From Halichondria panicea (taxonomy: Eukaryota; Porifera; Demospongiae; Suberitida; Halichondriidae), in NCBI RefSeq assembly GCF_963675165.1, contig NC_087378.1, positions 4,707,205 to 4,771,204 on the forward strand: a stretch of 64,000 bases of DNA. Direction: 5' to 3'. Both the position numbers and the translations under genes were made by a program. Below, one piece after another: positions 4,591 to 62,340 of this stretch (the stretch's first letter is position 1; each line of letters begins with the position of its first letter). The notes below the pieces were generated by a model. It made no database searches and was not told where the DNA came from. It worked only from the letters and a program-made list of their open reading frames with translations.

Positions 4591-5356
<766 letters not shown>

Positions 5357-40024: not shown

Positions 40025-40274
40025 GTTTGGAAGGCTTGATTTGTCTCAGGATTAAAGAGTATAGTGTCCGCTATGTTCTCTCATCTGTGGATTACTTCAG
40101 TAAAGAACACCTTCCCTACGCTATCACTGCTTTGTTTGTTTTGATCTTGGTGATTATCTTTCCACTTGTATTTCTTGTCATCTATCCAATGCGTTGGTTT
40201 CAACGAGTTCTGAACAAGTTTAAAATTCAGCGTCAACACGTTGATATGTTTGTTTACTGTTATCAAGGTTCATG
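40025..40274 (+). CDS. Orphan exon with one transmembrane segment
   Basis: A ttactttcag acceptor is followed by a frame ending in TGA at 40272-40274. It reads YSVRYVLSSVDYFSKEHLPY, AITALFVLILVIIFPLVFLV, IYPMRWFQRVLNKFKIQ. A hydrophobic stretch of about 23 residues followed by a basic Arg/Lys-rich tail is a type I membrane anchor. HLPYA-hydrophobic-YP-R-FQ is a pattern I know from the end of large sponge surface proteins. No ectodomain exons lie upstream, so it looks like a stranded fragment. Confidence 0.45.
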
Positions 40275-40667
40275 ACCACGCCCAGCTACTTTCGGCCTTC
40301 ATATCTAGAGAACCAAGCAAGGCACTGGAAATCCAAGACCACCACTAGAGAGCACTAATCAAGATCTATCATCAGATATATTAAAAACATCTGCCGTAAT
40401 CGGATCGCTAGCTATACCTTAATTAAGGAGTGATCACCAATACCACACAACTACACTACACTATATAAAATAATACTTCTATATAAATAAATAGTCAGCA
40501 CTTGGCTTTCCTTGCCTTCCTCAAGGCGGCAGCAGGTAGCACCATCGGGTATGTCTAAAACCGTCTTGCAATGCGCATGTGTATATAGTGTGCCGCGCTT
40601 GCGCATGCGCACCAAGTCCAAGGTATAATTATCTCTAGCAAGGATCTAGGACACGTGGATCTAGGAC

Positions 40668-42505: not shown

Positions 42506-42783
42506 ATTTATTTCATTGTTAATTGATTTTGCTGTAGACTTTCTACGATATAATAACAATTATTAAAAGTGTTTGTAACAGTACTTGTGACACAGCTGTG
42601 TACAGTAATGGAATTGATCTACATGTAAACTTAGCCAACATGAATTGACCATTTATACCTCAACAACAGACAGCAAGTTAATTAATGCACCGTAATAATA
42701 TTATACCTCTACATTAATTAAAACATACATGTATACTGTAGGAGCAGTGTTACAGAGGTTACCGTAAACAGAATACAATGTAC

Positions 42784-42787
42784 ATAC

Positions 42788-42818
<31 letters not shown>
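42784..42818 (+). repeat. (GT)n followed by a long G run
   Basis: About five GT units followed by an uninterrupted run of about 18 G. It can form G-quadruplex structures and is a frequent sequencing-error site. Confidence 0.85.
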
Positions 42819-43121
42819 CTATGTACGGTACATATAAGCCTGTACGTGTGTGGATTAATTCAGTCAATATAGATGCATTAAAAGACAAATTAAAATTTTG
42901 AATCACATACAATGTATGATGTAATCTATTTTTGTGTTTACTCTAACTCACTTGTAAGCAGAAATTCTTGTTGTACACACTGTTAGAGTCGTCGTAACAA
43001 CAGCCTGGCTTACTTACTAGTAGCCAACAGAGGCACAACACCAAATGGTAGGTGGGCGGGGTAATCCCCATGAACAATGAGAGTGTGAGACACTAGCGGG
43101 TTGGACCTGTGTGAGGAGGGT

Positions 43122-43156
<35 letters not shown>

Positions 43157-43488
43157 TAGTTGTATGTCAAAACTAACATATGCATTCAGTAGCTCTAAAA
43201 GCGCATGGATCCTCCTTGCCAGTCCTAACCCTAATACACACAAATGAAGCGCAAGGATTTAATTATGTACTAGGGGTTATTAAGGTACAGTATTTGTTGA
43301 CAAATACCCCCCAGACACCACCACCCTTGCCATCACTCTAATACCTTAAATTGTAGGAGCTAGGTGTACGAGTGTGACATAATGGCTATAATTATACAAC
43401 CTAAAAATAGTAAGGGTTTTCCTCTGTGCTCATCCAGCTAACCACACTTACCACTGAGCTCAGCTAAAAACCCACAAAGAGCTGACAA

Positions 43489-43496
43489 TATAAAAG
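43489..43496 (+). promoter_or_regulatory. TATA box of the FHA gene
   Basis: tataaaag lies 65 bp before the ATG at 43554. The surrounding leader (gctattcacatctcaccaag) is repeated before the gene at 50171, which also has tataaagg at 50073. Confidence 0.5.
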
Positions 43497-43553
43497 GCTA
43501 CACAAACAGAAAGCTATTCACATCTCACCAAGTTGAGCAACAGTGCAACCAGC

Positions 43554-45222
43554 ATGGAAGATTCTCACAACCCAACAAGCGAGCCGTCTAGCGTATTCCT
43601 GCAGGAACAAGAGCCAAATCAGGTTTGTAAACCCTGTACAGTAGAGGTTAATTAATGACCTGTCGCAGAGACCTAACCACAGCCCAGGAGGAATCTTGCC
43701 TGAAACAGGTAAATTATTAAAGCGTATTTGCAATCACAGTTCGATTACTAATGGAACGGTAGGTTGAATATTGTAATAGGCATTTTACGGCATGTTTTAC
43801 AATACTATCGCTATAGACACGCCCAGATACCATCTCCTATTTTTATAGCCAAACATGAACAGTAGTATTTTATGTGCATACCATCACAAGATACAAAGAT
43901 ATTACTGACATATGCCCCTACATTGAGTTCAAATATGGTAAACGATGATTGTTATTAACCCTAGGCGCGTAGGCGGGCCACAGGTTATAGTCCGGTCTGT
44001 CTGTCTGTATATATTCTGAGTCTGCTCACTCTGATACCTTCTGATAATGTCAACCAGAAAGACTAACGGCAGAGCGTGATGAGACTTTGAGCACCCAATC
44101 AGCGAGCCTTTTGCGAGTGCTCTCCCAGGACAAGAATATCTCCCAAAACGTAGAATATACACCCCCGGTATATTTCGACTATTTCCTCAAAGAGGGTGAG
44201 TCGATTGTACATACTCTGTGCATGTGTGTGTGCGTGTGTCCCCGATTTTCTATACACACATATATGTACAACAGGGGATAACTTGGTAGGACGTGGGGAG
44301 GATTGTGATGTGACACTCTCCAATGGATCCCTCTCCCGGAAACATGCACAGATACTTGTGGAGAAGGGTTCACACTTTATAAAGGATCTTGGAAGTCGGA
44401 ATAAGACGTTCAGGCGAAAGGTGGTATTGCAAATCATACATACATGTACATGCATGTGAGACAGTTAGATTGTTATAGCAGAGAACTCAGTAAGCTAATC
44501 TAATGTTTGACAGCTGGTTAAATGATTATTGAGCGACAAGACAAAAATCTAACTTACACTGAGATGTAATTGTAGTGATGTGCATGTCACTCCCTCCCAC
44601 CTCCCAGGTGGCCCTCAAGCCTAACATCTATTATGAGCTGACGGACGGAGTGCAGGTGACGTTGGCCAATATCACTTGTTACTACCTCATAGGAAACGGG
44701 CAGGAGGAGGCAGCCAATGATGAACGAGAAGGTAACTCTTCTATGCTCCAGTAGGTTTTTGGTGAACTATATGGTTTGTCCTAGTTTCAGAGGAGAGTGA
44801 AACCAGTACAGTGTTGTATGGCCCCAGTGAAACTCAAGAGAGTGTGGAGGACTATGATTACAACTATGAGGAGGAGAGCCCTCAACCTCAACCACCAATT
44901 GGTGAGTGCTGTACAACAAATATATGTACGTATAGGAGATTATTTGAGTGGTAGCTTTAGTGTCTACGAACATTGACATACATTGTAATTATGTCTCGAC
45001 CGCACGAGGACTACGGCATAAAGCTGACTGTATCCGTGTGTGTGTATTCCAGCTCTGTAACTGCTCAACGCAAAAACAAAAACTTGGCGTACTTCAAACC
45101 AATTGTATTTCCTTACAGCAACAACCCTTTCAGTTTGCCGCACCCCCACCTCCAACCGTAAGGCCTCGGCCTCAGCCACTGAGACGTCTCAAGTACCTGC
45201 TGCTAAGAAGCGGCGTAAATAA
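43554..45222 (+). CDS. FHA-domain nuclear protein
   Basis: Seven exons join in phase to 245 codons plus stop: 43554-43622, 43669-43708, 44058-44195, 44275-44420, 44608-44731, 44785-44901 and 45119-45222. It starts MEDSHNPTSEPSSVFLQEQE. The FHA core reads VGRGEDCDVTLSNGSLSRKH, FIKDLGSRNKTF, VALKPNIYYELTDGVQVTLA, NITCYYL. The GR, S-RKH and N residues that bind phosphothreonine are present. An acidic tail (YDYNYEEESPQPQPP) and a basic end (VPAAKKRRK) complete it; the last is a good nuclear localisation signal. The arrangement resembles the N-terminus of MDC1-like DNA-damage adaptors, but no BRCT part follows. The first exons resemble exons of the gene at 50171. Function: phospho-dependent nuclear adaptor, by inference. 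Confidence 0.85.
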
Positions 45223-46824
45223 CCTTATACCTGAGCTCCCATATTGTACATTGTATATATGCATGTACATGTACTCACATTGTTGTTTTCTTGCATTGTG
45301 TACAGGGTCACTGTTAAGTACACAACCACATAAAGTATTTTAAAGCATGTTACTGAGTGTCAGAGTCTATGCATGATGTTCATATGCATGAGGAGTTCTA
45401 ATGTTGGGAAAGCATGTGTGTATATATTGTTTTTGGGTGCCTCTCGAGAAAGGGCGTGGCAGCATTTGCAAAGATGTGGTGTACTACTTATCCTCTCAAC
45501 AATTTATTGCTACAATTCAGGTTGCTATAGCGGGGGATATTTGTAAGGGAATTTCCTCCTAAAGACCCTACCTAATTAGGTAACTAAAGTACGTATAATT
45601 ATAGCCTGGATAATAGGTGGTAGGTTAAATACACACGGAACTTGTACACTAGCTGTTAGAGGAAATCTGAAACACTTACCACGAAGTCATTCGCTTTCTG
45701 TTCCTGTTCTTTGATATCATCCTTAGCTGCTTAATTCATTCTCATATCACTGCTCCCAATCAACTCTACCTGTATGGTCAGATGGAGAAATTTAGAGAGA
45801 TTTTAGGGAGGTAGATACGTAACTATTGAAGCCTCTCAAAAAAGAGAGGTGGCAGAGGTTGTTTAGACATTACATGTCAGCATTGCACAAAGTTTGAGTA
45901 GTCTACATAACGGACACCTTCGGGGAACAACGTTTTGTCACTAGTACGTGCATGTTTAAATACGCTCAATAGGTACTTTTTTTACCCATTACATGTCCTG
46001 TATGCCCAATAGTAACTCCCAATAGGTGCTAAGTCAGGTACGTACACATGTACATGTAGTAAAGCTGACCTCAACTTTCCGAAGGAGTCAACCACTTTTT
46101 TCTGTGTAAAGACAGGAGAACATTATAATTACCAAAACAAAAAACACGTGCAGCACTGACGTAGCACGCACATAAACAATACACGAACATCTAAGGAGAG
46201 AGCCAGTGTTTTCTTGGCTTGCTAGCTAAAGCTCTAATACAAGTGAGGTGGAACAGTAACAGCATGCAGTTCACACTATCTGCAGTGGAGTTACCTGGCA
46301 GCAGTCTCCAGTATTGATATCCTGCCATGCCGTCATTCTCAATCTGGGCGGCCATACTCTTGCTACCTCCACCTGATTGGTCAGATCCATGAGAAGGCGT
46401 TGTATGGAGAAAATGTTGCTGGACAGGTGTGCTTGAGCTGCAGAAAAGTGCGACAAAAAGCCATACACTTACAGTAACGGACGATCGATCAAGTCGATCA
46501 TCCATCATTGGTATAGCCCAGAAGGTCGAATACAAGACCTTTTCGTCCCTAATGTTTATTGTGCCGGGACTCATCAGTGGACTGCACGCGCACGCGCACT
46601 CAGTAAATGTACTTTGCTCACACTATTAGCGGTTTCTAGAACTAATAAATAATTACTTGCATCCAGTGTAATTTAATTTTGATTGGAAAGTGGTCATGGC
46701 AATAGGCAAATGGACTAAGTGTACATGTAGTTATGGTCCAACAGGCTGTGGCTGCATGCATGTGTCTAATTGGAATGTTGTGGTCTACCTAACATGAATA
46801 TAGATTGCCTTATTATGCCATAAG
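45223..46824. other. Possible minus-strand exons, weak
   Basis: On the minus strand an ATG frame MDDRLDRSSVT ends at a gtaagt donor (46470-46510). After a tttctgcag acceptor (46440) a frame QAHLSSNIFSIQRLLMDLTN, reminiscent of syntaxin N-termini, ends at 46374. KKVVDSFGKLR (46075-46105) and AKDDIKEQEQKANDFV (45680-45730) are further exon-like pieces. The phases between the first two do not match, so I do not call a gene. Confidence 0.25.
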
Positions 46825-46972
46825 CCATGTATAAAATTGTTTCATGTACAGGTACATGTTTTTGAATTATGGAAATACTAGCTATTATTTAGTAGCATTT
46901 TTGAGAGCATGTTCAATTCCTAAACTAATAATATTGATGCAGTAGCTCTCAGAATTACCTTTCCAATGAAAT
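46825..46972 (+). repeat. Dispersed repeat, left member of an inverted pair
   Basis: Matches 22690-22830 directly and 48471-48605 as reverse complement (gagcatgttcaattcctaaac, tctcagaattacctttccaa). The pair encloses about 1.5 kb. Confidence 0.85.
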
Positions 46973-47479
46973 CTACGAATACAGTGCCTGCGTAGATCTA
47001 CTGTTGTGCTCTCTAGCAAGCTCAAGTGAACTCGAATATTGTAAGCTGTTAATGGAGACAGCAACTATAACTAACACAAGACTGCTCTCCATAGTAGCCT
47101 ATGTACAGTAAAACCACTAGGTTTGGTGAATTTCAAGCTATTGAGCCGGGATCCTCGTGCTGATCCATAATTTTAGAAGAAATGCCATGCACATTCGCAA
47201 AGGTTTTTCACCAGCAAAATATTCTAATACTTAACCTGCCATCGACTCATTAATGGGTGCCGTACACTGCGGCTATCGGAAATATAAAGTTGCCAAAATC
47301 GAGGCATGCCCTAAAGCGCAAGTTTTCGCCCGTGTTTCGGCGCGCCCCCTCGCCCAAACGTGTATGGATTTCTTTAACCGGGCCCTTGCCTTGTTTCGGC
47401 ACTTACAAGTTTTGAGCACCCCGAAACGTTATTTGGCGGGTAGCCGAGGGTGTACGCTACAGTTGGGTACCAACCTCGT

Positions 47480-48000
47480 CATGTCCTGATATAGGTAGGT
47501 GTAGTCCTGCAGATCCGAGAGTACTTTGTGACTGCCGAAAACATCAAGGAGGGATCCCCTGCACACTCTGACCATTACTTGAAAAGGGGGGGGGTTTCAC
47601 GAGGGTATTGGGTGTGGCTGGGTGGGTTACCAATGGGGAAAGGGGCTGAAATTGAGGTAAGAGCTTGTAACCTACCCCCCACAGACTGTTCGTTCCGAAC
47701 AGTCTGTGGGGGGTAGGTTATATAGTGATAGCTGATCCACACTCACAAAAAATATAAAATGCTATAAATGTGTAGGAGGTGTGTACCTCAAGTTGCGGAG
47801 TGCCCCCTAGTTTGATAGTGGTGGGGGCGTTAGAGGGTGTGGTGTCCATAGAGGTGTCGACCCCGCTCCCTTCTGACGAGACCCCACACAAGCACTGTCC
47901 ACGCAGAATGGACAGGTGGAGACTTGATGAGACGCTCCTCAATCTGTACAATAGGGGAGGAGGACACATTGTCAGAGAAACTAATCACACTTGTATCTGA
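47480..48000 (+). CDS. Possible exon fragments, unrecognised
   Basis: IREYFVTAENIKEGSPAHSD (47513-47575) follows an acceptor-like ctgcag. A second open frame at 47779-48000 contains HCPRRMDRWRLDETLLNLYN. Both look protein-like but the antisense frame of the second is open too. No family seen. Confidence 0.25.
47668..47720. repeat. Perfect 24-bp-arm hairpin, 5-base loop
   Basis: 47668-47691 (taacctaccccccacagact then gttc) is the exact reverse complement of 47697-47720. The loop is gttcc. It could act as a structured RNA end, an extrusion site or the remnant of two inverted element ends. Confidence 0.95.
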
Positions 48001-48191
48001 GCGCATCATTATGCCCCAGTGCGCATGCACAAGCGAGCTACATATACGGTAGTGTGTCCGTGTGTGTGTGTGTAGACTGCTACAGCCGCTCAAGGATCAA
48101 TGAAGTGCAAATAAGAGTTTCTATAGGCTTCTAATCATGTTTTCTTGGATTTTAATTCGTGGATTTATAAAATAAAGCTTCATTCTCGAGT

Positions 48192-48375
48192 TATGGCTAG
48201 TTTTGCTCACTTCGAGTGCCATTGCAGCCTTTTCAGAAGAGTTCGTAGCAAAACCTGTTCACTGAGTGTTGCTACTCTACTTAGTAGTTAGCTCTGCACT
48301 AGAACGCTAGCTATTGGTAGCTGCAAGAGTGAGAAAAGAGCTGCAAGGCTCGCTGACTTGCAGCCATTAATTTTA
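48192..48375 (+). repeat. Dispersed repeat shared with 58655-58840 and 54270-54330
   Basis: Blocks ttatggctagttttgctcac, ttagctctgcactagaacg and agaaaagagctgcaag have diverged matches at 58655-58840. The part gtgttgctactcta...gcagccattaattt matches 54272-54325. Confidence 0.65.
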
Positions 48376-48470
48376 GACTTGAACTTTTGGCATTGATCTT
48401 TTTTAACAACACAATCACTATCGATCATTACCCACTAATAATCATGATCAATGTTTGCTTTATGTTATGT

Positions 48471-48605
48471 AGCTTTGGCACCTCCACCGAGGCATCAGCA
48501 CCTACATGTATGGTGCTTTCATTGGAAAGGTAATTCTGAGAGCTACTGCATCAATATTATTAGTTTAGGAATTGAACATGCTCTCAAAATGCTACTAAAT
48601 AGGTG
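48471..48605 (-). repeat. Dispersed repeat, right member of the inverted pair
   Basis: Reverse complement of the block at 46825-46972, extended by the gcacctccaccgaggcatca block that is also at 22830-22855 (inverted). Confidence 0.85.
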
Positions 48606-48687
48606 TGAGGCTCTACTTTAATTAAATAGGGATAAATACCTTCATTAGCCTTCATTATGACTAATCACAGAGCCTGTGTGTGTGGGG

Positions 48688-49151
48688 GGGAAGTTGTGTA
48701 CAGTATGCACACCTTGCACGTAGGGGTGGTCCCAATATCGTCTCCTGCATAATCGAGTGATCCCTGTGGCTAGCCGTCAGTCGTGTCTAAGCCGGGTGCC
48801 CTCAGCTGGGGGGGGGGGGGGGGATATTTAGCAACACAGTTCAATATGTACAGTACATTAGGTATAAAACCTGTTGTGTGTGTAGGGAGGGGGGGGGGGG
48901 GCTATGTACAGTACATTAGGTATAAGCCTGCCATGTACATACATGTAGGAGGTGATGAAGCAAAGTGGTATCACAACCTAAAAATAGCTAACCACACATT
49001 ACAGGGTTTATGCTAAGTCCTGGTAGAACAAGATAGATCTTGAATAGAAATTGAGCAATAATTTAGAACCACAATGTACCTGTGCTGGACATGATGAAGC
49101 ATGATGTATGATAAAAATAGTAAGGGTGCTGGACATGATGAAGCATGATGT
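48688..49151 (+). repeat. About 465-bp direct duplication, copy 1 (copy 2 at 49560-50022)
   Basis: Shared from gaagttgtgtacagtatgca through cgagtgatccctgtggctag to gctggacatgatgaagcatg. The copies differ in the length of their G runs. A short third copy of the first part is at 60258-60330. Confidence 0.9.
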
Positions 49152-49575
49152 ATGAGTATAAGCCTGTGTGTGTGGGGGGGGGGGGGGGGGAGGTTGTGTA
49201 CAGTATATTAGCTACATGAGCTTGTATGATAAAAATAGTAAGGGTGCTGGACATGATGAAGCATGATGTATGAGTATAAGCCTGTGTGTGTGGGGGGGGG
49301 GGGAGGTTGTGTACAGTATATTAGCTATGAGCTTGTGTGTGTGGGGGGAAGGTTGTGTACAGTATATTAGCCATGAGTGTGTGTGTGTGTGTGTGGAGGG
49401 CGGGTTGTGTACAGTATCTATGATCCTGTGTGTGTGGGGGGGGGGGGGAGGTTGTGTACAGTATAAGCCTGTGTGTGTGTGGGGGGGGGGGGAGGTTGTG
49501 TACAGTATATTAGCTATGAGCCTGTGTGTGGGGGGAAGGTTGTGTATGTGTTGGGGGGGGGGGGGGAAGTTGTGT
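49140..49575 (+). repeat. G-run tandem array
   Basis: Seven or more units of cctgtgtgtgtg, G6-G18, aggttgtgtacagtatatta, tagctatgag. The long G tracts, spaced 40-70 bp, give strong G-quadruplex potential on the + strand. It lies between the two 465-bp copies. Proline-rich antisense frames are artefacts of it. Confidence 0.9.
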
Positions 49576-50022
49576 ACAGTATGCACACCTTGTACGTAGG
49601 GGTGGTCCCAATATCGTCTCCTGCATAATCGAGTGATCCCTGTGGCTAGCCGTCAGTCGTGTCTAAGCCGGGTGCCCTCAGCTGGGGGGAGGGGATATTT
49701 AGCAACACAGTTCAATATGTACAGTACATTAGGTATAAAGCCTGTTGTGTGTGTAGGGAGGGGGGGGCCATGTACAGTACATTAGGTATAAGCCTGCCAT
49801 GTACATACATGTAGGAGGTGATGAAGCAAAGTGGTATATATCACAACCTAAAAATAGCTAACCACACATTACAGGGTTTATGCTAAGTCCTGGTAGAACA
49901 AGATAGATCTTGAATAGAAATTGAGCAATAATTTAGAACCACAATGTACCTGTGCTGGACATGATGAAGCATGATGTATGATAAAAATAGTAAGGGTGCT
50001 GGACATGATGAAGCATGATGTA
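49560..50022 (+). repeat. About 465-bp direct duplication, copy 2
   Basis: See 48688-49151. It ends about 50 bp before the promoter of the gene at 50171, so the duplicated block directly adjoins that gene. Confidence 0.9.
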
Positions 50023-50072
50023 ATAGTAAGGGGCTGGTGGTCATACTAACCACAGAAACCACAGAGCTCAGC

Positions 50073-50080
50073 TATAAAGG
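50073..50080 (+). promoter_or_regulatory. TATA-like box of the chimeric gene
   Basis: tataaagg about 98 bp before the ATG at 50171, in a leader that parallels the FHA gene leader (aggaagctattcacatctca against agaaagctattcacatctca). The extra distance comes from a small duplication, agcaagatttca ... agcaagatttca. Confidence 0.45.
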
Positions 50081-50170
50081 TTACACAGAACAGGAAGCTA
50101 TTCACATCTCACCAAGTTGTATCAGAGAGCAAGATTTCAGTGCAAAGCAAGATTTCACAGTGCAATCAGC

Positions 50171-53100
50171 ATGGACGAAGAGGTTTGTACCCTGTACAAT
50201 AGAGTGGCATGTGAACACATTATTTTGTCACAACAAGTATACGTAATGTACACTTTCCGATAATTATTATTAATTAACTCTACAGAAACTTGAAGAACAG
50301 GCCAGGCTGCCAGAGTACGACTCGGCCTCTACTCCAAAGATGCGAGAGATACAGGTGAGAATTTTTATATGCTAGCAAATACCAAATATACACCCATAAT
50401 AATTGCAATGACTCGCTCACCTTCACAGGAGGAGAGTGCCTTTGACCTGTCGCAGAGTCCTAACCACAGCCTCACTCCAGAGGAGGAATCTTACCTGAAA
50501 CAGGTAAGCAATCACAGTACGAAACTCATGTGCATCTTTGTAGGATTGCAATTCTGCACAGAAGTTTAACACTATTTGTATGCTCTCAATTGGAGGGTTG
50601 CATGCATATATGTAATGAACAATAAACTCGGTCTAGTGTCTCCAGTTGCTCTTTAAAATGGAATGGTAGGTCGAAAAATAGGCCTGGGGTACCTGGGGGC
50701 GTGGTTGAAATTCGTTTCCAAGGTAGTTCCTGAAGGTGCCACACATCGGTAACGTGTACTACTGTAGGTTTAACCGTTTTGGCACCATACGAAGCGTAGA
50801 AATTTACCGTACCGTACGGTTGCACGTTTTGTTGCGCTTTCGATTAAAAACTGTTGAGCGACAATACATGTAGAATGCTTATGTCAGTTCTGTACCGATC
50901 CTTGTACAGTAGCTGCTCTCAAATAGTAGCCTCAGTGAACGTTGAGGCTAGCACGTGGCAGCCATATTAATACTAGCTAGGTAGAAGCTAGTTAGTGCTT
51001 TACAAATACTTTCTTGTGGCAGAGTTTGAGTTTGTGCAGGTGAAAAGAGCAACTTGAAGGTGCTGGAATGTTTTATAGGCCAGGGTATTAATCGCCTCTC
51101 TCGAATTGTAGCCTCTTTTACGCATATACAGTATGTACAACAAGGAAATAAAACGCATGGTGCGTTGTTTTATTTCCCCATTCACAGGTTCCTTAATCAG
51201 TATCATCAGTCTATGTGAATCCTATAATTATATATAACTGAGCTTAGAAAAATATGCTACATTATAGGACATTGGTGACTCACCTCTCACCCCAACAACC
51301 GAGCCATCCAGCCCATATCAGGTTTGTACATGTACGTCTGCTGTCTGCATAATTTGTCGCTATATAATTATATTTGAGCTATATACATGTAATTAGACAC
51401 TAGTTGATAAGATATACGTGGGAAGTACATGGGAAAAGTGCCTCAGAGCAGTAGTATCTAGACACTGTGTGTCCATGTGGATACTCAGCGACACCTCCAA
51501 AACAGTGTCTAACTACTTTGTCGGACACGTTACAGCATAGATACTCAGGGTGTCATACAGGGGAGGGGGAAAGGGGCCCCTTTGGCTCCAAATTTGCATG
51601 TCCATAGCTGGCAATGGAAAATACAATTGACCGTTTTTTAGCTACATGTAGCAAAAGCATGCCTTGTGAATCCTACCTATATATATTTTATTGCATTATA
51701 GGACATTGATGACTCACCTCTCACCCCAAAAACCGAGCCATCCAGCTTCTGCCGTCAAGACCCATATCAGGTGTGTATGTCCTTACGTCCTGCATGACAT
51801 AATTTGTCGCTATAAATATATAGTACGTACACTATTTTGCTTTTATAAGAGTGCTTGGTGCTTGCTATGGACATCATGTAACTTATTTTGTTGGGCACAT
51901 TCACCACAAACAACAATTAGCATACACGTAGATAGTGTGGAGAGGAATTGGAAACGAATTAATCAGTCAAACTTATGTGAATCGATCCTACCTATATATA
52001 ATTGAGCGCTTTATTACATTATAGGACATTGATAACTCACGCAAAAACGTTTCAAAAGGCATTCCCGCAAACCCTTGAAATATACGGTATATACATTGTA
52101 ATAGTATATGCATTGTAATAGCTAGAGTGGTTATAATTATTATACTTACGAGATACTAACTACAGGAGTACTCCAGGCTGCAAGAGTCCGACTCCACCCC
52201 TACTCCAAAGAAGAGATGTTTGCGAGAGATACAGGTGAGTGATGGTTACAACAAAGCACAACCACAGTGTACGCATGTAGTATGCTAGAATACACCCACA
52301 CTAATTGCAATGACTAATTAATCACCTTCACAGGAGGAGGGTCGGTCGCAGAGTTCTAACCCTAACCTCAGTTCAGAGGAGGATTCTGACCTGAAACAGG
52401 TAAATTATGCAATCAGGGTATAAAAGTCTTGTGCAGTATATGCTTGATCAGAGGCTGCGGCTACTAAATGTTTCATTTTGCTGGCAGAGTAAGCTATACA
52501 ATTCGAGAGAGGCGTTATTAGGCCTACTAACACCTCAACCCTTTACAATTCAATCTTTCAGTCCTAACCCTGTAGCACACACAACTATTATACATGTACA
52601 TGTACTAGGGATTAACGTCCCAGCATTTGTTGGTATGTACTTGGTCATCGTAAGTAATTTTCACCTGCCATGAGAAAGTCTTTCATAAAAGCACTATACA
52701 TGTACGTATATACCTCATGTAGCCTCAAATTTCACTGAGGTTATACTATTTGAGAGTAGCTCTATTGCACTGAATATGGGCTGTTTTATTTGAGGGCATC
52801 AGATTTTACAGAGAGGTAGTAGAAGGACTGTAGATACTTGGACTTATTACTCACCTTCACAGGAGAGTGCCTTCGACCCGTGGCCGAGTTCTAACCACAG
52901 CCTCAGTTCAGAGGAGGATTCTGACCTGAAACAGGTAAATAAATCACAGTATGAAAGTTACGTGCATCTTAGTAGGATTACTACAGAAAATTAGAACGAA
53001 TCGTATTCCACGTACATGTCATGTGATTGCAATGACTTACTCAATTAATAGGAGCATGTTTTACAATACATTCACATAGACATGCCCAGATACAATCTAT

Positions 53101-56100
53101 CTCAGGCCTATTTCTAAAAAAATTGGCTTGGCGACGAGACTATAATTATACAGGTCTAGACTTAAAGATAATGTGGTTATGCACACATTGGCAACGTGTA
53201 CTAGTGTAGTACGTACGTATGCTATCGAATAGTGCAATGTGTTACCCAGGAGGAGAGTGCCTTTGACCTCCTGTCGCAGAGTCCTACCCACAGCCTCACT
53301 CCATATGAAGATTCAGATGAAGATTCTTGCCTGAAACAGGTGCAAGAATATTTGTAATCACAGTATGAAACTCAAGTGCATCTTTGTAGGATTACAATTA
53401 CAACAGGGTTGCATGTAATTGTACATGTAGTATAATTATGTTGTGTATAAGGGTAATCCTAAAGTACATGCAACCATTACTTTGACTTTCAGGAGGAGGA
53501 AATTGACGACAGCCTCTCTCAAAAAGACGCCACTGATCTGGAGAAGGTAAACAACACAAGCTGAGTAAACGATCCCATTATATATAATATTATACACATT
53601 TACTACGTGTATGTACTCACATAGATAAATGCAGCACATCATGTACAGTCCAGGCAAATTTGATGTTATTCACTCTTGCTTAGGAGCAACAGGAGTCCGA
53701 TTTACAATCAACTCCAAGACAAAGCATACAAGTCACACCCAAACCAAGCCTGCACAAAATGCAGGGAGCAGAGGTAAGATAACGCTAAACAACAAATCAT
53801 ACTGTAGAAACTGGCTTAGTCAGGGTGATATACAGGATTTTGAAGTACATGTAGGAGGGGGAAATGTGGCGGTGCGCAAAGTGCACCGTCGCCTAAGGAC
53901 TCCCTCAGAATTTTTTGGGTGAATTCTGATGGGTTTTGGGGTTGCCTTTCGTATTTTAAATGGGGGGTCCGATTCTAAATCGATGGGTGTTAAAATTGGG
54001 TTTATATTTTTCTATGTGCATGAGTCAGCAAAACATACCATGTGCTCTTAGACCTTGACCTATAATTTAGATATGGACTATTTGTCTCGTAAGAGATCAC
54101 GTAGATGACGGTGACAGTGACAGTGCTAGTATTTTTGTCCATATATACAATCATACATCTAAATGTATGATAGAAAGGGGAAAACAAATGGAGCCAGGGG
54201 GATATCCTCCCTTCCCCGCTGTATGGCACCCTGGGCTTACTCGAATATAAGGGTTAGGGTTAGGGTTAGAGTGTTGCTACTCTAGTTACTTCTGTGCACT
54301 GTTTTATGAGAGCAGCAGCCATTAATTTATATAGACATCCTTTTTAGCAACAATTATGCATGCTAGCAGATTTACCAGTGTATGCCAATATAAAGCAACG
54401 TGCCAGCTACATGTATAATTATACATATATAAAAGCACCATATAAACACGTATATGTACATTACCTCTCAGGGATGCGCAAACACGGGACCGGAAAGGCT
54501 CACAGAACCGCACAGCTCAAAACCTGTGTATACACCAAAAAGAACACGTCAGTATACACGTCAGTATGAAACAAAGGTAAGCAAATGCATAGGCCACGCA
54601 AAGGGCTAGTCGACCAACAATGGGGCACCTTTTTTATGACACATTTTTAAGTACACTTACTATTCTTACTTTCAATCAGGTATTGATGACTTCAACCGAT
54701 ACCGATACCGATACCGGGTCAGACAGAGAATCGGAGTACTTTCCAACACCACTACGACAGTTTAAAATCAAGCTGCCCGCTTTACCAGATATTCCAAACA
54801 ATTGCACAATCGCAGAGATGCGACAGGTGGACAGCTTCATTCAAAAGTTCAGCAGAGGCTGCAAAAGAACGGGCTGCCGTGGAGGGCTTATTCCTGTTGA
54901 AGCGAGAACTCAGCAAATGGGAGGAGCGGCACGAATAATCTATAGATGCAAGAGATGCTCAAAGTATTATACTTTTGACAGTGCCATTCTTCCGGATCAC
55001 CCCACAACCAGACAGAGCAAACTCAGCAGGGCACTACAGGTGGCCTTCATTACAGCAGGATGCACACATGCAACATACAAGAAGGTGCTTGATATCCTTG
55101 GCATGGCGGCAGTGTCCTTTCCGACATTCATGCAAACTATAAGGGATATGCACCCTGTAGTAGAAGAAATGGTCGAGGAAATGTGCTCAAGAGAGAAAGA
55201 AAGAATGAAAAACATGAGCCAGGAAGAACTCGGATCATGGACACGAGCTGTTACTACTGCCGATGGTGCCTGGCACACGCGTGGTTTCTTTAGCAAAAAT
55301 TCCACATTCACCGTACGAAACTACTTCAACGGAGCACTGCTATATTTTATACATCTGTGCCAAAAAGGCCGAGACCACATCATCGAAGAACCGCTGTACA
55401 AAGGCACATCTAAGTCAACTGAAGGGTACAGTGCAACACAATTGATGAATGTGGCACGCACAGAGGGTTTGAACATTGAAGTCCACTGGCAAGATGGTGA
55501 CTCTTCTTCTAGCAAACGTGTCTTAAAAGCGTTTCCCGGTGCCAAAATCATGTTGTGCGGAGGTCATGCTGCAAAGTCTCACCTCAAGCTACTGATGGTT
55601 CGAGGCAAGCAAAAGAAGTTCACTGCCGCACTACAAAACAGGGAGAAACATTTTTTTCCAGAAGTTGTTAATGTCGAGTGTCACTGCAAATCCAAAAATT
55701 GTAAGGCAGGATGCGGATGTCTGACAGACGTGTTCTGCCAGCGTTCGAGAAATAGCTTCTCCACCATACTGTCGACCTGCGAGTCTGCCGCTGACTTCTC
55801 AAGACGACTCAGTCATCTAACACACCACGTACAGGATGAGCACCAATGGGAGGAAGAACAAACATGTGAAAAACACTATCTAACCACCTGTAAAGAATGC
55901 GAGTTCGAATCTGACGGCGTGGTTGCTCGACAGTGTGACTTTCACCCCCTTACACTATGTAACTGCGGCGAGTGTGCCGATAAAAATCACCACGAGTGTG
56001 AAGGGAAACTGTATCGTACGAAAGAGGTATTACGTTGCCCCTTTCACCTACTAGCATACAAAATTGAGTGCCTGACGAGAACAAAAATGGCCGACAAGCT

Positions 56101-58225
56101 AGTCCACCCCATCCTGAAGCGTGGCCACTCCAATTGGCTCGAGAGTTCACACAGTGTTCTGATACGATTTAGACAAAAGCACGTATTCTTAGAGAGGCTC
56201 CATTACATTGTCTCAACCAACCTCGGCCTATTGCAAGCCAACATGACACACGAGTATCAACAACAGGGGGCTGACTATCACTGGAAAACCGAGCTCTACA
56301 AAAAAATGAATCTACCATTGTACGAAGGTGTACAAGAGGTGTTGTCCAAGCAAAATCAACAGAGGAAGAAAGTACTTGAAGGAGTCAAAACAGAAAAGAC
56401 CAAAAAACGACGAGTGCAGCTGAAGAAGCTAAGAGTGATAGATCGACAGCAACGCATTGTCTGGACAGACCAACATGGACGTGACACATACGGAAAAAAA
56501 GCAACCAAGACTGCGTCCAGCCCTAAGAAGAAACAGAGCAAAGACCAGCCAAGAGCCAAGAAACGAGCCAAGAAAGACGCTCACAAGGATGGACAGGAGG
56601 ACAGCAGTAACAACTCAGACTACGCAAGTGAGGAGTTTGATATGGGCACGTTTGAAGAAGACATCCTCAGTGGGTGCATTTGCGGTGCTAATGGAAGAGC
56701 TCACAAACGATACTGTCCCATGAACCCCCAAAACTACTATCACAGGGAAAAGAATCCCACCCGCCCTTACAACAAAAGGCTCAACCTGTCGCGCACTTTC
56801 GGTGATGCACATGCCAGAATAAACTACGACGATGTCCCAGACGAGCATAATGTTGTCACTCCTGATGGTGATGCACATACCAAAATAAACGACTCAGACG
56901 TAGAGTGTTACGACGGTGTCCCAGATGAGCCTGATGGTGATGACTCAGACATAGAGTGTTACGACGGTGTCCCAGACGAGCATGATGTTGTCACTCCTGA
57001 TGGTGATGCACATGTACCAATGACTGACGTAGACAGTGACCATGAGATCCCAGACGAGCATGTCAGTGCTCACAAACACATCAGCGAACCACACATCAAC
57101 GATCGAACCAATGCAGCACAACCCGAACCACAAATCAACGTAGACAAGACGGACAGGCTAGAAGTTGGCATGTACGTTTATCTTCACAGCAGTCGTTTTG
57201 GAGAGCAGCACCTTCTCTGTCGGATTGCTAAAAAAGTAGGCAATCTTTTTCGGTTGTATTGTGGCGGTGGTATTCTTAACGCAAGCTATTCCCCAGAAGT
57301 GTTGACAATTTCTTTGAGTAACAGTAACCACAGCCTTTCACTAGGGAATTGGCGCGCTTCTCCAAATATCTCTTTGGCTGCTGCCGCCCTTGAAGCTGCC
57401 TGCCTTGCTAAGTGCAAGTGTGTCATTCCCAAACCTGTCGTTGTAGACATTTCCGAAGATGATGGCCCTACCACAGCTGCTACAAATGAAAAAGTATGGA
57501 TGGAGAACTGTTTATACAAATTAACCATCGCAGAAAAGGAAGAGGTAGTATCTTCTTGTGGTTGGCTCAATGACAGGGTCATCACTGCTGCTCAGCTATT
57601 AATGCTACAGCACTCTCCTTTGATGAAGGGATTGCAACCACCTACGCTTGCACAGCATCAGGCCTTCGATTGTCACAAGGATCAGATCTTTGTGCAAATT
57701 ATCATTGTTGGTAACAGTCACTGGTGTGTTGTATCGAATGTGGGCTGTGACGAAGGTACGGTGAATGTGTATGACACGATCTTTGCTAGACCTTCGAATA
57801 TCACCGTACGGGTTGTATGTAGCCTTGTCTCCTGTTCAACGCCCACACTATCCATCAATATGATGGATGTTCAGAGGCAGTCAAATGGATCAGACTGTGG
57901 CGTGCTTGCGATTGCTATCGCTTTCGAACTCTGCTGCCATAGAGATCCATGTATCCAGAAATTTGGCAACACAGTTTCTATTCGATCTCATCTTGCCAGG
58001 TGCCTTGAAGACTGCAAGCTTACCACATTTAGCACAGGAATTCGTAGGTGCCGAAACAAGGTTAAATTTTCAAAGCAGGTTGAAATTGCTTGTTTATGTC
58101 GAGAACCTAAAGATAAAAAATCGATGGTGAAATGCAAAAACTGTAAAGCCTGGTTCCACAAGCACTGTTGCAGGGAAACCACACAAGTTGTAGTTCCCTG
58201 GACCTGTACATTTTGTAGAAACTAA
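50171..58225 (+). CDS. Chimeric gene: exon-duplicated acidic N-terminus + transposase-like region + Ulp1-type protease + PHD finger
   Basis: Thirteen exons, each a whole number of codons (phase 0-0): 50171-50182, 50286-50354, 50429-50503, 51268-51321, 51702-51770, 52166-52234, 52334-52399, 52863-52934, 53250-53339, 53493-53546, 53684-53773, 54472-54576 and 54680-58225; about 1,456 residues. Short exons fall into repeat types: EESAFDLSQSPNHSLTPEEE (four copies), DIGDSPLTPTTEPSSPYQ (two), STPKMREIQ (two). The last exon (numbered as a frame opening at 54620) has Cys pairs at 81/86 and 110/113; transposase-like TTADGAWHTRGF (D215), HWQDGDSSSS (D292/D294), CGGHAAKSHLKLL (H316); a Cys/His cluster 353-473; GHSNWLESSHS (E508); a basic stretch 580-655; an acidic repeat 728-815 (DGVPDEHDVVTPDGDAH); a Ulp1/SENP-like peptidase with H1034, D1052, Q1087, C1093 (QSNGSDCGV); and a PHD finger 1158-1199 (C4HC3). 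Ulp1 enzymes cleave SUMO-type conjugates; PHD fingers read histone tails. The 3.5-kb exon is unlike its small neighbours and is probably a transposon ORF. Splicing is inferred from perfect phase agreement. Confidence 0.75.
52024..52078 (+). pseudogene. Decayed copy of the DIDDSPLTP exon
   Basis: After an attatag acceptor the frame starts DIDNSRKNVSKG, parallel to DIDDSPLTP, but runs into TGA and has no donor. It shows that the exon array also loses members. Confidence 0.6.
54250..54269 (+). repeat. Interstitial TTAGGG repeat, three units
   Basis: agggttagggttagggttag within an intron of the chimeric gene. It is too short and internal to be a telomere. Confidence 0.9.
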
Positions 58226-59572
58226 TTGCTGTTGTTTTTTCCATTATTCTACGTACACGTTGTAACTGTAATGTTATATATTAAGTGGTTGAAAGTGCTC
58301 CCAGAGATAGTGGTGGTGTACATTAAACCGCGGCCAGCATCCGGATGACGTGTGCGTTATATAAGAATATCAACTACATGTACATGTACACACACACTGG
58401 CCAGTATATCGAGTGTGACCTAACAATCTTGAAAGCTTTTTTTCCAACATAATACAACTAGTGCTGCAAGCTGGCGCTTTGCTAATACCTCTCGCCATGA
58501 TTTGCACACTTTCCTCTAACAGACTGCTTGTTATAGATACTACTACTTTCTGTGCTAATTTTGTCTTACTATTCTCACAGACTATGTCTTTAGTATGCCT
58601 CGAGGCGTAGTCGCAGGAGGGATATGGTAAAGCTATGTAAGTAAAGTTAGCTCGAGTTATGGCTAGTTTGACTCACATTGAAGGCTGTTGCAGTCTCTTT
58701 AGAATCTTTCGTAGCATCATCTGTTCGCACAAACTTTCTATTCAACTTATAAGTTAGCCTTGCACTAAAGCGTTACGTCAGAAAAGAGCTGTAAAGCAGC
58801 TAGCTCTGGCTGTTTAGTAGCCATTACTTGGATCTCCTGCAGACACGCCCCTTATTCCTGTAGATGTAATGCAAATGCGCGCTAATCACCACGTGTCTTC
58901 TTTCTTGCTTCCTGGTAAGCCACAAATGCAATGATACCATATACAAGTCTGACAGTCATAGATAGATCACTTCTTCTCACTTTTTTTAACAGACTGCATG
59001 CTGAAAATGGGTATACCGAAAAATGTCAATATTGTTCGTTCCTCCTTGACAAATGCGAATATAATTATCATCATCAGAAGCCCATAAAGAGAAGGACTAC
59101 GGGGATCACGTTTCGTAAGTAGTTATGACCGCATTTCCAGAGTCACTAAGTGGCCTACACGTGTTATACGCAATGCAGGGATGCGGTACAAGGAAGTGCG
59201 GTTTCACCGGCAATTACGAAACGCGATCCCCGAGTATACGTTGAAGTTAGCCGCTCCTTCTCTTTATGGGGCTCCTGTTATTACCCATGTACAATGTCTA
59301 CTTTATGCAAGAGACTACTTTTGCAAACACCGTCTAAATCCCAGGGGACTGAGTGACCACAATGACATAGCAGGGAGCGCATTTATGACTTCAATGTGGG
59401 ACATAATGGGCTAGACGGGCGTCGCCGCCCTCACCGTTACATGGAAGGAGGACAGGAACCAAGCCTATGTACAGTTTTGTTTTGAGATTGCAGTATTTCA
59501 AGTGGATTGATCACACACTTAATTTTACCACGTGTAAATTTTGCACACGAGCAACACCCACTTTACGGCTAG
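58226..59572. other. No supported gene; dispersed repeat and partial hairpin
   Basis: Includes the repeat 58655-58840. A weak inverted pair (cccataaagagaagga at 59078 and tccttctctttatggg at 59254, with gatcacgtttcgtaa / ttacgaaacgcgatc inside) suggests a decayed foldback element. The frame at 59181-59414 spans it and is probably not coding. Confidence 0.45.
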
Positions 59573-59905
59573 AATGAATAATATCAAGAGTTTATGATAG
59601 AGAGAGAGTATCGAACGTAGGCATACTGTGAGTAACGTGACTTCCTGTATCTGTCACAAGCTTGGAATTTGCACACTGACCAATCCAAGTGTGGGTGATG
59701 TCATCTATCAAGAAAGTAGATTACATCACCCACACTCACACTTGGATGGGTTGATAGATTACATCACCCACGCTTGGATTGGTCAGTGTGCAAATTCCAA
59801 GCTTGTGACAGATACAGGAAGTCACGTTACTCTCCGCATACATCTGATGTACAGTATGCCTACGTTCGATACTCTCTCTCTATCGTAAACTCTTGATAAT
59901 ATTCA
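59573..59905. mobile_element. Large foldback element, arms of about 130-150 bp
   Basis: The left arm contains atatcaagagtttatgatag, gtatcgaacgtaggcatact, gtgacttcctgtatctgtca, caagcttggaatttgcacac. The same blocks return inverted on the right up to tcttgataatattcat. The right arm has one extra insert (ctccgcatacatctgatgta). The centre holds short direct copies of gattacatcacccacactc. No coding capacity. Confidence 0.9.
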
Positions 59906-60257
59906 TGATGCTATTGCGTAACAGGCCAGAACAAAACTGTGGACAGGCTTGATTCCCGACCTCCCTTTCAGAGGGAGGCGACGCCCGACTACATAATAGG
60001 CTGAATTTGGGGCAGTGCTCAAAAGCATAATAGGGGGCAGAATTATTTCTATCTACTCAGATATACTCGAGGTTTTGCAGTTTGGAAATCTAGGCACCGC
60101 GGGAGAATAGAATAATAATACGGACAATAATTATTTTTTGTAAAGGATTTGATTTCCTAAAGAGCAACATGTACATGTAGGTGGACATGTACCTACATGT
60201 ACATGTACAATGTAGCTGTCAAGGAGGGCTTCACTAACCCCGGGTTTGTAAATCTGG

Positions 60258-60330
60258 CCAATATCGTCTCCTGTATAATCGAGTGATCCCTGTGGCTAGC
60301 CGTCAGTCGTCACCAGGAGCTGGGGGGGGA
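60258..60330 (+). repeat. Third, short copy of the 48.7/49.6-kb repeat
   Basis: ccaatatcgtctcctgtata, cgagtgatccctgtggctag and ccgtcagtcgt, followed by a G run, match 48730-48815. It ends next to a C run and the MITE at 60427. Confidence 0.85.
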
Positions 60331-60426
60331 GGAGGATATAGCTCTGATAGCAGTGATGAACATCAGTACAGTTTTCACAACTGTACCCCCCCCCCCCCCC
60401 CCACACACACACAGGCTCATAGCTAA

Positions 60427-60566
60427 GGCCACTCCAAATGAGACTGTAGTTTCCCGTCCAACTCGCGCTTCTTGCTTTAGCTACCTCATTGATAGTCATT
60501 ATGATACATCCGCTTATAATTTACTAGAGTCTCTGACGGGAAACTACAGTCTCATTTGGAGTGGCC
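60427..60566. mobile_element. MITE, 32-bp perfect TIRs (family of 31148-31449)
   Basis: 140 bp with the same exact arms as the 302-bp copy. The core shares ccaactcgcgcttc and aatttactagagtctct, so it is an internal-deletion derivative. Confidence 0.93.
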
Positions 60567-62340
60567 TAATGTACTGTACACAACTTCCCCCCCTACAAGT
60601 GGATAGGCCTGGAAGGGGACAGAAGCTTCAATAACCAGCCTTGAGCCAGCCCAAAAGTACCAAATTATTTTCAGGTTCTAAATCTGAAACGCTCTGCTCG
60701 AGGCCCTCCTGCAATTAATTATAATACGTGAGTAAGCTATACAGCTCTCTTCAAATTGCAAGCTGTACAGTGGAAGACAAACAAAAGGACTTTATATATC
60801 AGCTGCAACAACTAGAGCAGTTATACAGCACATGCATAATTATAATAAATTTATTTGTCTAGTTCACATATAATCATCTCACTTACCATAAGCCATATAG
60901 CTAGCTAGCTTACTGCTTGTGTCTTGGTACCATGGTGTCAGTAGTTTGAATTAATTTCTATTTAAAGCACTAGCACTGCGGCTTTAAATCCACTGACCGC
61001 GGCCACTATAAGGAACAATCCGCCGCTAGCTGCACAATTTAGATGGCCACCTTTACCTGCATTTTTGTAAAGATCGTCAGTAAGAAGAAGAGTTAGGAGT
61101 TCAGGAACAACGCATTTGTGCTCTTCTTGGTGAGTAGATTCAGATTCACTGTTTTTTTTTATGTTTGAAAGAAATTGGCATTTCTTTGGTTTCGTAATGC
61201 CTGTAAGTTACTGATTTTTGAGTGTGTAAACGTGTAAGATGTAGGTATGTACGGAATTTCAGAATTTTAGCAGGACGGCAAGCAAAAACAGACAGAGCTA
61301 TAATTATGCAGAAATAACTATGCTTAAACATACTGCTAAACATACTGCCTGCAAAAACCAAGTATTCGGCAAAAGGTGCTGCAACTTTTTCCCCAAGTAC
61401 TATTCAGTAGCCCGTACATTATATTTTTAGTTTGTTATAGGTTAAAGTGGACATGTCATGTTGTCTGAAATTCCCACTATACTATTGGGTGTCCTCCTGT
61501 ACATGTTAATGGTACGAACTTATCACCTCAGGAAAGTGAAAGTGAAGCATTGGGTTCACACCTTCAAGCTCCCTGAGGTGTTCACTAACCGCACAATGAA
61601 AGCTCTCCGAAAGGGCTCAGGTGAATCAAGAAAAGACCAACGTCACATACGTCACATACGTTGAAAAGTGTGCGATATTAAACATATCAATTTGACATTT
61701 TGTTTTCTCATAAAAATTTAAGTTTCCTTAATCAAAAATAAAGATCATGTGATTATCATGTGACCAATTAACATGAAATTTCCTTGTAAAACTAATCATA
61801 AAACTAATTATAAATAAAGCATTTGTTCCAGGTTAGTTAGACAGGTTAGTTAGATCCTGTCTTTTCCTGGAATCCTGATGCACATAATTATTATACACTA
61901 ATTAAATCCTGCTGCGCAAAAGCAGATTCATAGGTAATCATGGTCTATACAAACAACAAGCTAATATTTACCTGAATTGTTCTCCTCCTAACTGATTTCT
62001 CCTCCTAACTTTCTTGCTTGGCTGCACTCTGTCTTGCGCAGCAGGAAACAAGGTAGCCTACGAAACAAGGTAGCCTACAACAAATGCTTTCAGGGTTTTA
62101 CTCGATCAACTAGCTACGGTCAACTTTAATAAATTAAGTACAGTGTCATGTGACCCAAGCTCCGCCCTCACTAGTAATTGCAGACGTTTACCACCCACGC
62201 ACGTGATAAACATTCCAAAGCGCGCATGAATATCATTATAACAAAATTCCATGTCATCTTAATTTGGACAGTCCTTAATACCTCCTTAATACCCCTGAGG
62301 GGTTGATCACAAAGGCAGGTTGATCACAAAGGCAGCACGT
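60567..62340. other. Mostly non-coding; weak exon candidates
   Basis: A minus-strand frame (CVVPELLTLLLTDDLYKN, about 61060-61125) and a plus-strand frame at 61525-61664 (KVKHWVHTFKLPEVFTNRT) look protein-like but lack a convincing context. Confidence 0.3.

What the first reader, a model, noticed from the sequence alone, without database searches (positions are those of the whole stretch)
50171..58225. A gene that appears to fuse a host exon array to a transposase / SUMO-protease / PHD protein
Twelve small exons with good splice sites, all of phase 0-0, lead in frame into a single 3.5-kb exon. That exon carries a transposase-like Asp-rich core, a Ulp1-type peptidase with His, Asp, Gln and Cys in place, and a C4HC3 PHD finger. 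The combination would link DNA-element mobility (or its repression), SUMO removal and chromatin reading in one protein. Ulp1 domains are known as passengers of some DNA transposons; a host-type N-terminus together with a C-terminal PHD finger is not something I know described.
Basis: partly seen in the sequence, partly recalled or inferred. Interest (0 to 1): 0.88.

Follow-up and report, generated by a model that had tools for sequence, protein, structure and literature searches.

The report
Multi-exon Mutator-like transposase gene family
The supposed fusion of a host gene with a transposase is most likely a transposon family's own many-exon gene, because the same small exons sit beside the transposase at other places in the genome; its protein tail (SUMO-protease-like domain plus PHD finger) is a known transposon feature, while its front exons seem to have been swapped between distant lineages.

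Summary
Twelve small phase 0-0 exons lead in frame into a 3.5-kb exon (54680-58225) that encodes a Mutator-like (PF20700) DDE transposase core, a Ulp1-like protease with H, D, Q and C in place, and a C4HC3 PHD finger. The interpretation, a local fusion of a host exon array to a transposase, does not hold. A copy on another contig (C4) has all 12 small exons, their splice sites and the long exon. The small-exon protein matches 13 loci in the genome, 12 of which also have transposase matches, including five loci of a divergent lineage. Exon indels are nearly all multiples of three (8 of 9; introns 14 of 72), and dN/dS is below 0.5 in 9 of 11 recent comparisons. So this is an apparently intact gene of a multi-copy DNA transposon family. 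Transposase + Ulp1 + PHD is already in print (Ginger1-9_HM; a figure legend on Ulp1 and PHD of Mutator transposases). The least ordinary result is a mosaic: copy C11b shares the window's 5' exon block (99.2%) but carries another lineage's transposase (65% to the window, 97.7% to C11a). Transposon ends (TIR, TSD) and transcription remain unproven.

The parts
50171..50182 (+). E1, first coding exon (MDEE)
   Evidence: Sequence; unchanged in C4 and C11b, one synonymous change in C14 (where the script's E1 was shifted by one base)
50286..50354 (+). E2, exon type A (KLEEQARLPEYDSASTPKMREIQ)
   Evidence: present in C4, C11b, C14
50429..50503 (+). E3, exon type B (EESAFDLSQSPNHSLTPEEESYLKQ)
51268..51321 (+). 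E4, exon type C
51702..51770 (+). E5, exon type C
52166..52234 (+). E6, exon type A; the type with a homologue next to the transposase in the divergent copies
52334..52399 (+). E7, exon type B
52863..52934 (+). E8, exon type B
53250..53339 (+). E9, exon type B, longer
53493..53546 (+). E10
53684..53773 (+). E11
   Evidence: 76% DNA match in C11b
54472..54576 (+). E12
   Evidence: in C4 and C15
54680..58225 (+). E13, last exon: transposase, linker, Ulp1-like protease, PHD finger, stop
54830..55774 (+). Match to PF20700 Mutator-like transposase (residues 50-364 of P0001)
   Evidence: E 8.8e-13
55262..55264 (+). Proposed first catalytic Asp (D194 of P0001, TADGxWxTRG)
   Evidence: Conserved in 8 of 8 copies aligned; role assigned by motif (recalled)
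55493..55495 (+). Proposed second catalytic Asp (D271, WQDxDSS)
   Evidence: Conserved in 8 of 8 copies aligned; role recalled
56141..56143 (+). Proposed catalytic Glu (E487, ExSH motif)
   Evidence: Conserved in 8 of 8 copies aligned; role recalled
57719..57898 (+). Ulp1-like catalytic residues H1013 (57719), D1031 (57773), Q1066 (57878), C1072 (57896)
   Evidence: Invariant in alignment A1 of 4 proteins and in the 9-row alignment
58091..58216 (+). PHD finger, residues 1137-1178
42717..61146 (.). Stretch over which copies elsewhere align to the window in pieces: left limit from C6 and C11:5016146 matches, right limit from C14; not proven element ends

Best explanation
The 50.17-58.23 kb gene is the transposase gene of a large, multi-copy Mutator-like DNA transposon family of this host genome. 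It is spliced from 13 exons, and the 12 small ones are the gene's own N-terminal exons, not a host gene fused here. The protein would consist of a disordered, acidic N-terminus rich in S/T-P, built from duplicated exons of types A, B and C; an N-domain with zinc-type cysteines and a DDE core that cuts and joins element ends; a basic and then acidic linker; a Ulp1-like SUMO-protease domain; and a PHD finger. Shown: sequence, exon chain, conservation, copies, dN/dS, mosaic structure. Inferred: splicing, disorder, catalysis, and that the PHD finger anchors the transposase on chromatin while the protease removes SUMO from host repressors or repair factors. The 5' exon block has most likely been exchanged by recombination between lineages whose transposase bodies differ by about 35% at the DNA level.
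For: 58 matched stretches on 15 of 39 contigs (the window's own included, several per locus; a lower bound), among them C4 with 98% and 92% pieces and an open 1109-aa frame. In C4 12 of 12 small exons, 48 of 48 splice bases scored, and 3 of 3 exon indels in multiples of 3. Pooled over C4, C11b and C11a: exons 8 of 9 indels multiples of 3, introns and short flanks 14 of 72. Small-exon protein: 12 of 13 matched loci also hold transposase matches. A type-A exon lies next to the transposase in C3, C2a and C2c. PF20700 passes its cut-off in the window protein and in C2c. NG86 dN/dS: 11 comparisons with dS below 0.2, of which 9 below 0.5: window-C4 0.42 (1046 codons) and 0.36 (its C-terminal part), window-C14 0.28, window-C15 0.41, C11a-C11b 0.47, C2c-C8 0.28, C2a-C3 0.27 and 0.10, C2c-C3 0.49 and 0.78, window-C17 0.76. 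Mosaic.
Against: No TIR and no TSD could be defined; the near-identical pairs C2a/C2b and C2c/C8 run for 15 kb or more, and the C2c/C8 match continues to the edge of what was fetched, so spread by segmental duplication is not excluded. No transcript data. Two of 11 close comparisons have dN/dS near 0.8. PF20700 does not reach E 1 in C11a, C11b or C15. Small exons are not clearly more conserved than introns by identity: more alike in C4 and C15, less alike in C11b, C11a and C14. One of three exon indels in the C11b comparison is not a multiple of 3, though an intact E8-like exon lies there.
Confidence: 0.88

Rival explanations
1. One reading: a host gene's exon array became fused in frame to a transposase/Ulp1/PHD exon at this locus, giving a new chromatin protein.
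For: The exon chain and frame are real, and no transposon ends tight around 54.6-58.3 kb were found.
Against: The same array with the same last exon exists on C4, and in part on C14, C11b, C11a and C15. The one small-exon match without a transposase match is a 21-residue stretch at C1:8296934 (E 0.008).
Confidence: 0.04
2. A domesticated, host-owned family of former transposase genes, duplicated segmentally and kept for a host function.
For: Intact frames, dN/dS below 1, very long near-identical duplicates, no TIR/TSD found.
Against: 12 of 58 matched stretches contain stops (a stop may lie in an intron), copies on 15 of 39 contigs, mosaics; proposed catalytic residues kept, which a domesticated gene need not keep.
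Confidence: 0.1
3. The C11b mosaic is not recombination within a gene but a nested insertion of one element next to another.
For: The region is full of repeats and nested fragments; the C15 copy, with window-type start and end around another transposase body, could be nested.
Against: In C11b the exons lie in the same order and strand and at similar spacing, E1 to transposase about 4.65 kb against 4.5 kb in the window, and an E11-like exon only 76% alike, so of C11b's own kind, follows the shared block.
Confidence: 0.2

Closest known systems
Mutator-like elements (MULEs), Pfam PF20700; Mutator elements carrying Ulp1 (hydra, lancelet, Arabidopsis, maize, rice, melon, as cited in PMC2836005)
   Same: PF20700 match, D-D-E pattern with C..GH motif, C-terminal Ulp1-like domain; the PMC2836005 Fig. 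1e legend says Ulp1 and PHD domains of Ginger1 and Mutator transposases are aligned there (legend seen, figure not held)
   Different: 12 small, partly duplicated N-terminal exons; no TIR/TSD found; near-identical copies extend over 15 kb or more, while complete arthropod MULEs are given as 1.4-10.0 kb (start of the abstract of PMC13359780, one passage)
Ginger1-9_HM (Hydra)
   Same: DDE transposase with C-terminal Ulp1 and PHD in one protein (PMC2836005 Table 1, section 5 read)
   Different: Ginger1 has a Gypsy-integrase-type core; this family has 2 introns, 3,758 bp, 120-bp TIR; here the core matches PF20700
Rehavkus
   Same: Mutator-related, PHD finger in the transposase, a minisatellite in the element (PMC6446971 passages); a minisatellite also lies here at 49157-49582
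   Different: There the minisatellite precedes the 3' TIR, here it lies 5' of the gene; reported from arthropods and annelids; Ulp1 not mentioned in the passages seen; no tree made here

Membership tests
Mutator-like transposons (MULE) | Transposase matches the Mutator-like profile | tested here: met
   PF20700 E 8.8e-13, 48.4 bits against cut-off 26.5; also C2c, 30.6 bits; not in C11a, C11b, C15
Mutator-like transposons (MULE) | D-D-E residues conserved across copies | tested here: met
   D194, D271, E487 in 8 of 8 aligned copies; assignment by motif, no structure
Mutator-like transposons (MULE) | Terminal inverted repeats (some groups have none per PMC6446971 Table 1, passage seen) | tested here: inconclusive
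   No convincing TIR; a candidate terminus near 58505 proved to be a dispersed repeat; true ends not reached
Mutator-like transposons (MULE) | 8-11 bp target site duplication | tested here: inconclusive
   Element ends not defined
Mutator-like transposons (MULE) | Multiple dispersed copies | tested here: met
   58 matched stretches on 15 of 39 contigs
Ginger1 | Gypsy-type integrase core with H2C2 zinc finger and GPY/F motif | tested here: not met
   No integrase family in Pfam at E up to 1 for the window protein; PF20700 instead
Ulp1 / C48 SUMO proteases | His-Asp-Gln-Cys and profile match | tested here: inconclusive
   Residues invariant; profile match to 7fiu E 1.6e-4; but Peptidase_C48 stays below its Pfam cut-off and paralogs also show weak hits to other protease/acetyltransferase families. 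Activity not tested
PHD finger | C4HC3 and profile above cut-off | tested here: met
   Three paralogs 28.2-28.9 bits against 24; the window's own 19.7 is below it
Rehavkus | Falls in the Rehavkus clade | not tested
   No reference sequences in the tools

The most novel reading that the evidence does not exclude
The N-terminal exon array is an exchangeable cassette: tandem exon duplication lengthens it, and recombination swaps it between transposase lineages too different in their bodies to recombine there, so a DNA transposon evolves its regulatory or host-interaction front end separately from its catalytic body, carried in large elements of 15 kb or more that also carry a SUMO protease and a histone reader.
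Probability: 0.3. Interest if true: 0.6.

Novelty: new variant of a known kind. Interest (0 to 1): 0.36.

Why it matters
It removes a claim of a new host-transposase chimera and replaces it with a testable case of modular evolution in a DNA transposon: same 5' exons, different transposase body. It also adds a further example of DNA transposons carrying SUMO-protease-like and chromatin-reader domains, which bears on how transposases meet SUMO-dependent silencing.

Tried and rejected
Transposon ends: the inverted-repeat search between 40-50 kb and 58-64 kb gave mainly simple-repeat matches and short chance-level ones. The shared end at window 58505 in window, C14 and C17 looked like a terminus, but the 30-mer has 88+88 genome matches (reversed-pattern control 0) and belongs to a dispersed repeat of about 100 bp ending CACTAGTT, so it was dropped. 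The motif AAGGTATAGCCAGCGATC marks a right-hand limit: its 30-base form has 6 places in the genome with up to 3 mismatches, the five copies C2a, C2b, C3, C2c, C8 and one on C39, but no mirror-image left end was found; in the window the 18-base form occurs once, with 1 mismatch, at 40403-40420. A 9-bp repeat ACACTTTCC at 50250 and 58506 is compatible with chance. Relatives in IMG/VR contigs and prokaryote genomes: none confirmed, as expected for a eukaryotic element. NCBIfam: only a sub-threshold match to a clan-CE-type family. Literature searches; no title or abstract start in those listings described a swapped 5' exon cassette in a MULE, but beyond the listings only the passages named in this report were seen, plus passages of PMC12221973, which did not bear on the question.
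Full report
What was claimed and what is there. That is correct: E1 50171-50182 to E12 54472-54576, then 54680-58225. A chain this long is not chance: with a strict donor rule the region gives 8 chained exons, 300 shuffles give at most 4, and 72 other stretches of the window at most 5. The small exons are of few types: E2 and E6 alike, E3, E7, E8 and E9 alike, E4 and E5 alike, some with flanking intron pieces also alike, so the array grew by duplication.

Domains. Pfam gives PF20700, Mutator-like transposase, E 8.8e-13; PHD and Peptidase_C48 are below their cut-offs in the window protein. PHD passes in three of three paralogous C-termini given; there the protease region shows only weak hits, to Peptidase_C48 in one and to YopJ- or ElaD/SseL-type families, which I recall as the same clan CE. 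A profile of four C-termini from window, C2c, C11a and C3 (alignment) finds histone-reading PHD fingers at E about 1e-9 and a ULP protease at 1.6e-4 in the PDB set. D194, D271, E487, the C..GH motif, H1013, D1031, Q1066, C1072 and the eight PHD ligands line up in all copies aligned, 8 for the transposase part and 9 for the C-terminal part (the C14, C17 and C11a rows lack part of the region upstream of the protease residues). Naming D194, D271 and E487 the catalytic triad rests on motif knowledge, not on a structure.

Copies. The window is C2:4707205-4771204 of an unnamed 131.5-Mb genome in 39 contigs. The last-exon protein has 58 matched stretches there, several per locus and the window's own included, on 15 contigs; only 39 of 265 first-look candidates were scored, so this is a lower bound. 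Among them are C4 (98% over residues 1-604, 92% over 790-1180, open frame of 1109 aa), C14 (pieces of 92-98%, with stops), C15, C17 and many more distant ones. DNA comparison shows that the copies carry far more than the transposase: C14 matches the window in pieces between 42853 and 61146, C4 in pieces between 49897 and 58248, C11b over 49558-52838.

The small exons belong to the transposase gene. C4 has 12 of 12 of them, with 48 of 48 scored splice bases kept (the script's E1 was shifted by one base, and the printed sequence shows the E1 donor intact). C14 keeps E1-E3; C11b has E1-E7 and an E8-like exon. The joined small-exon protein finds matches at 13 loci of the genome, 12 of which have transposase matches; the exception is a 21-residue match at C1:8296934, E 0.008. 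A type-A exon lies just upstream of the transposase in C3, C2a and C2c, whose transposase pieces are 41-49% identical to the window's. So the array is an old part of this gene and not a host gene met at this place.

Selection. Indels between window and C4, C11b, C11a: exons 8 of 9 multiples of three, introns and short flanks 14 of 72. Of 17 NG86 comparisons, 11 have dS below 0.2: window-C4 0.42 (and 0.36 for its C-terminal part, so this pair is counted twice), window-C14 0.28, window-C15 0.41, window-C17 0.76, C11a-C11b 0.47, C2c-C3 0.49 and 0.78, C2c-C8 0.28 (two changes only), C2a-C3 0.27 and 0.10. Two near 0.8 speak for relaxed constraint in some copies. In the other six, between lineages, dS is saturated in five and 2.0 in one. 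Small exons against introns, identity: C4 0.991 against 0.984 and C15 0.973 against 0.952, but C11b 0.983 against 0.990, C11a 0.942 against 0.964 and C14 0.956 against 0.982; the last three include misaligned or paralogous exons. Identity alone therefore does not show constraint on the small exons, while frame conservation does.

Mosaic. Over window 51700-52430 (E5-E7 with introns), gap columns left out, C11b is 99.2% identical to the window, as C4 is (99.1%), but 94.7% to C11a. Over transposase 55030-55594 C11b is 97.7% identical to C11a and 65.3% to the window. The two blocks therefore have different histories; the break lies near window 52838-53043. C15 has a window-type E12 and start of the last exon (99.7% over 369 bp) and a window-type C-terminus (93.7% over 1094 bp) around another transposase body (40%), which may be a second mosaic or nesting. 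I read C11b as recombination or gene conversion; why it happens (selection on the front end, or simply a similar region that can still recombine) is open.

What I could not show. No TIR or TSD was defined. C2a/C2b are near-identical over about 15 kb (9117 bp at 99.96% and 5887 bp at 100%) and C2c/C8 over 15.9 kb at 99.2% and further at 97.1% to the edge of the fetched DNA, so the moving unit is large, or these are segmental duplications. There is no RNA evidence, and structure prediction was off.

Compared with what is known. Bao and co-workers (PMC2836005: section 5 read, other passages; author name recalled) list Ginger1-9_HM with Ulp1 and PHD, have a figure legend on the alignment of Ulp1 and PHD of Ginger1 and Mutator transposases, and cite Ulp1-bearing Mutator elements from hydra, lancelet and plants, with the idea that such domains may act on DNA repair during or after transposition. 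The Mutator survey (PMC6446971, passages seen) gives a PHD finger for Rehavkus and lists groups without TIRs. So the protein's domain set is known; the many-exon N-terminus with exon duplication and its exchange between lineages are the variant features. The listings showed no description of that, which is weak evidence only.

Mechanism proposed. Spliced mRNA gives a transposase whose front is probably disordered and is rich in S/T-P sites, whose core cuts the element's ends, whose PHD finger may hold it on chromatin and whose protease may strip SUMO from silencing or repair proteins. The steps after 'gene with these conserved domains in many copies' are inference.

Change made on rechecking.

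Noticed in passing
49000-49158 and 49870-50028; 49157-49582: A 159-bp direct repeat (99%; the search began at 49000, so it may be longer) and a G-rich minisatellite lie just upstream of E1, and similar DNA recurs near other copies.
   Followed up: partly
59574-59906: Large inverted repeat (arms 89 and 56 nt, 94-96% complementary), a foldback-like unit also matched in C6, C14 and C2b.
   Followed up: no
58506-59327: An 822-bp segment that lies inverted in the C14 copy relative to the window.
   Followed up: no
58456-58505: End of a dispersed repeat of about 100 bp; its 30-mer has 88+88 genome matches, reversed-pattern control 0. The end CACTAGTT resembles a Helitron 3' end (recalled, untested).
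   Followed up: partly
10068-12446: On the minus strand, resembles (91-93%) stretches left of the transposase in the C2b and C14 copies, so the window holds a second piece of related mobile DNA.
   Followed up: partly
40274-40424: Matches the right-hand limit of the C2a/C2b/C2c/C8-type copies (94.7%), 9.7 kb upstream of E1.
   Followed up: partly
C3, C2a, C2b, C2c, C8 loci (L023, L025, L026, L028, L027): In these copies the protein is split over three open frames, as if by introns, while the window copy has it in one exon.
   Followed up: no
32664-33263: Minus-strand fragment with a sub-threshold match to the endonuclease-reverse transcriptase family PF14529, E 2.4e-5.
   Followed up: no
41786-42301 and 4856-5356: Frames that recall a SMYD-type and a P-type ATPase sequence to me; Pfam gave no such match, so these are recalled impressions only.
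   Followed up: partly
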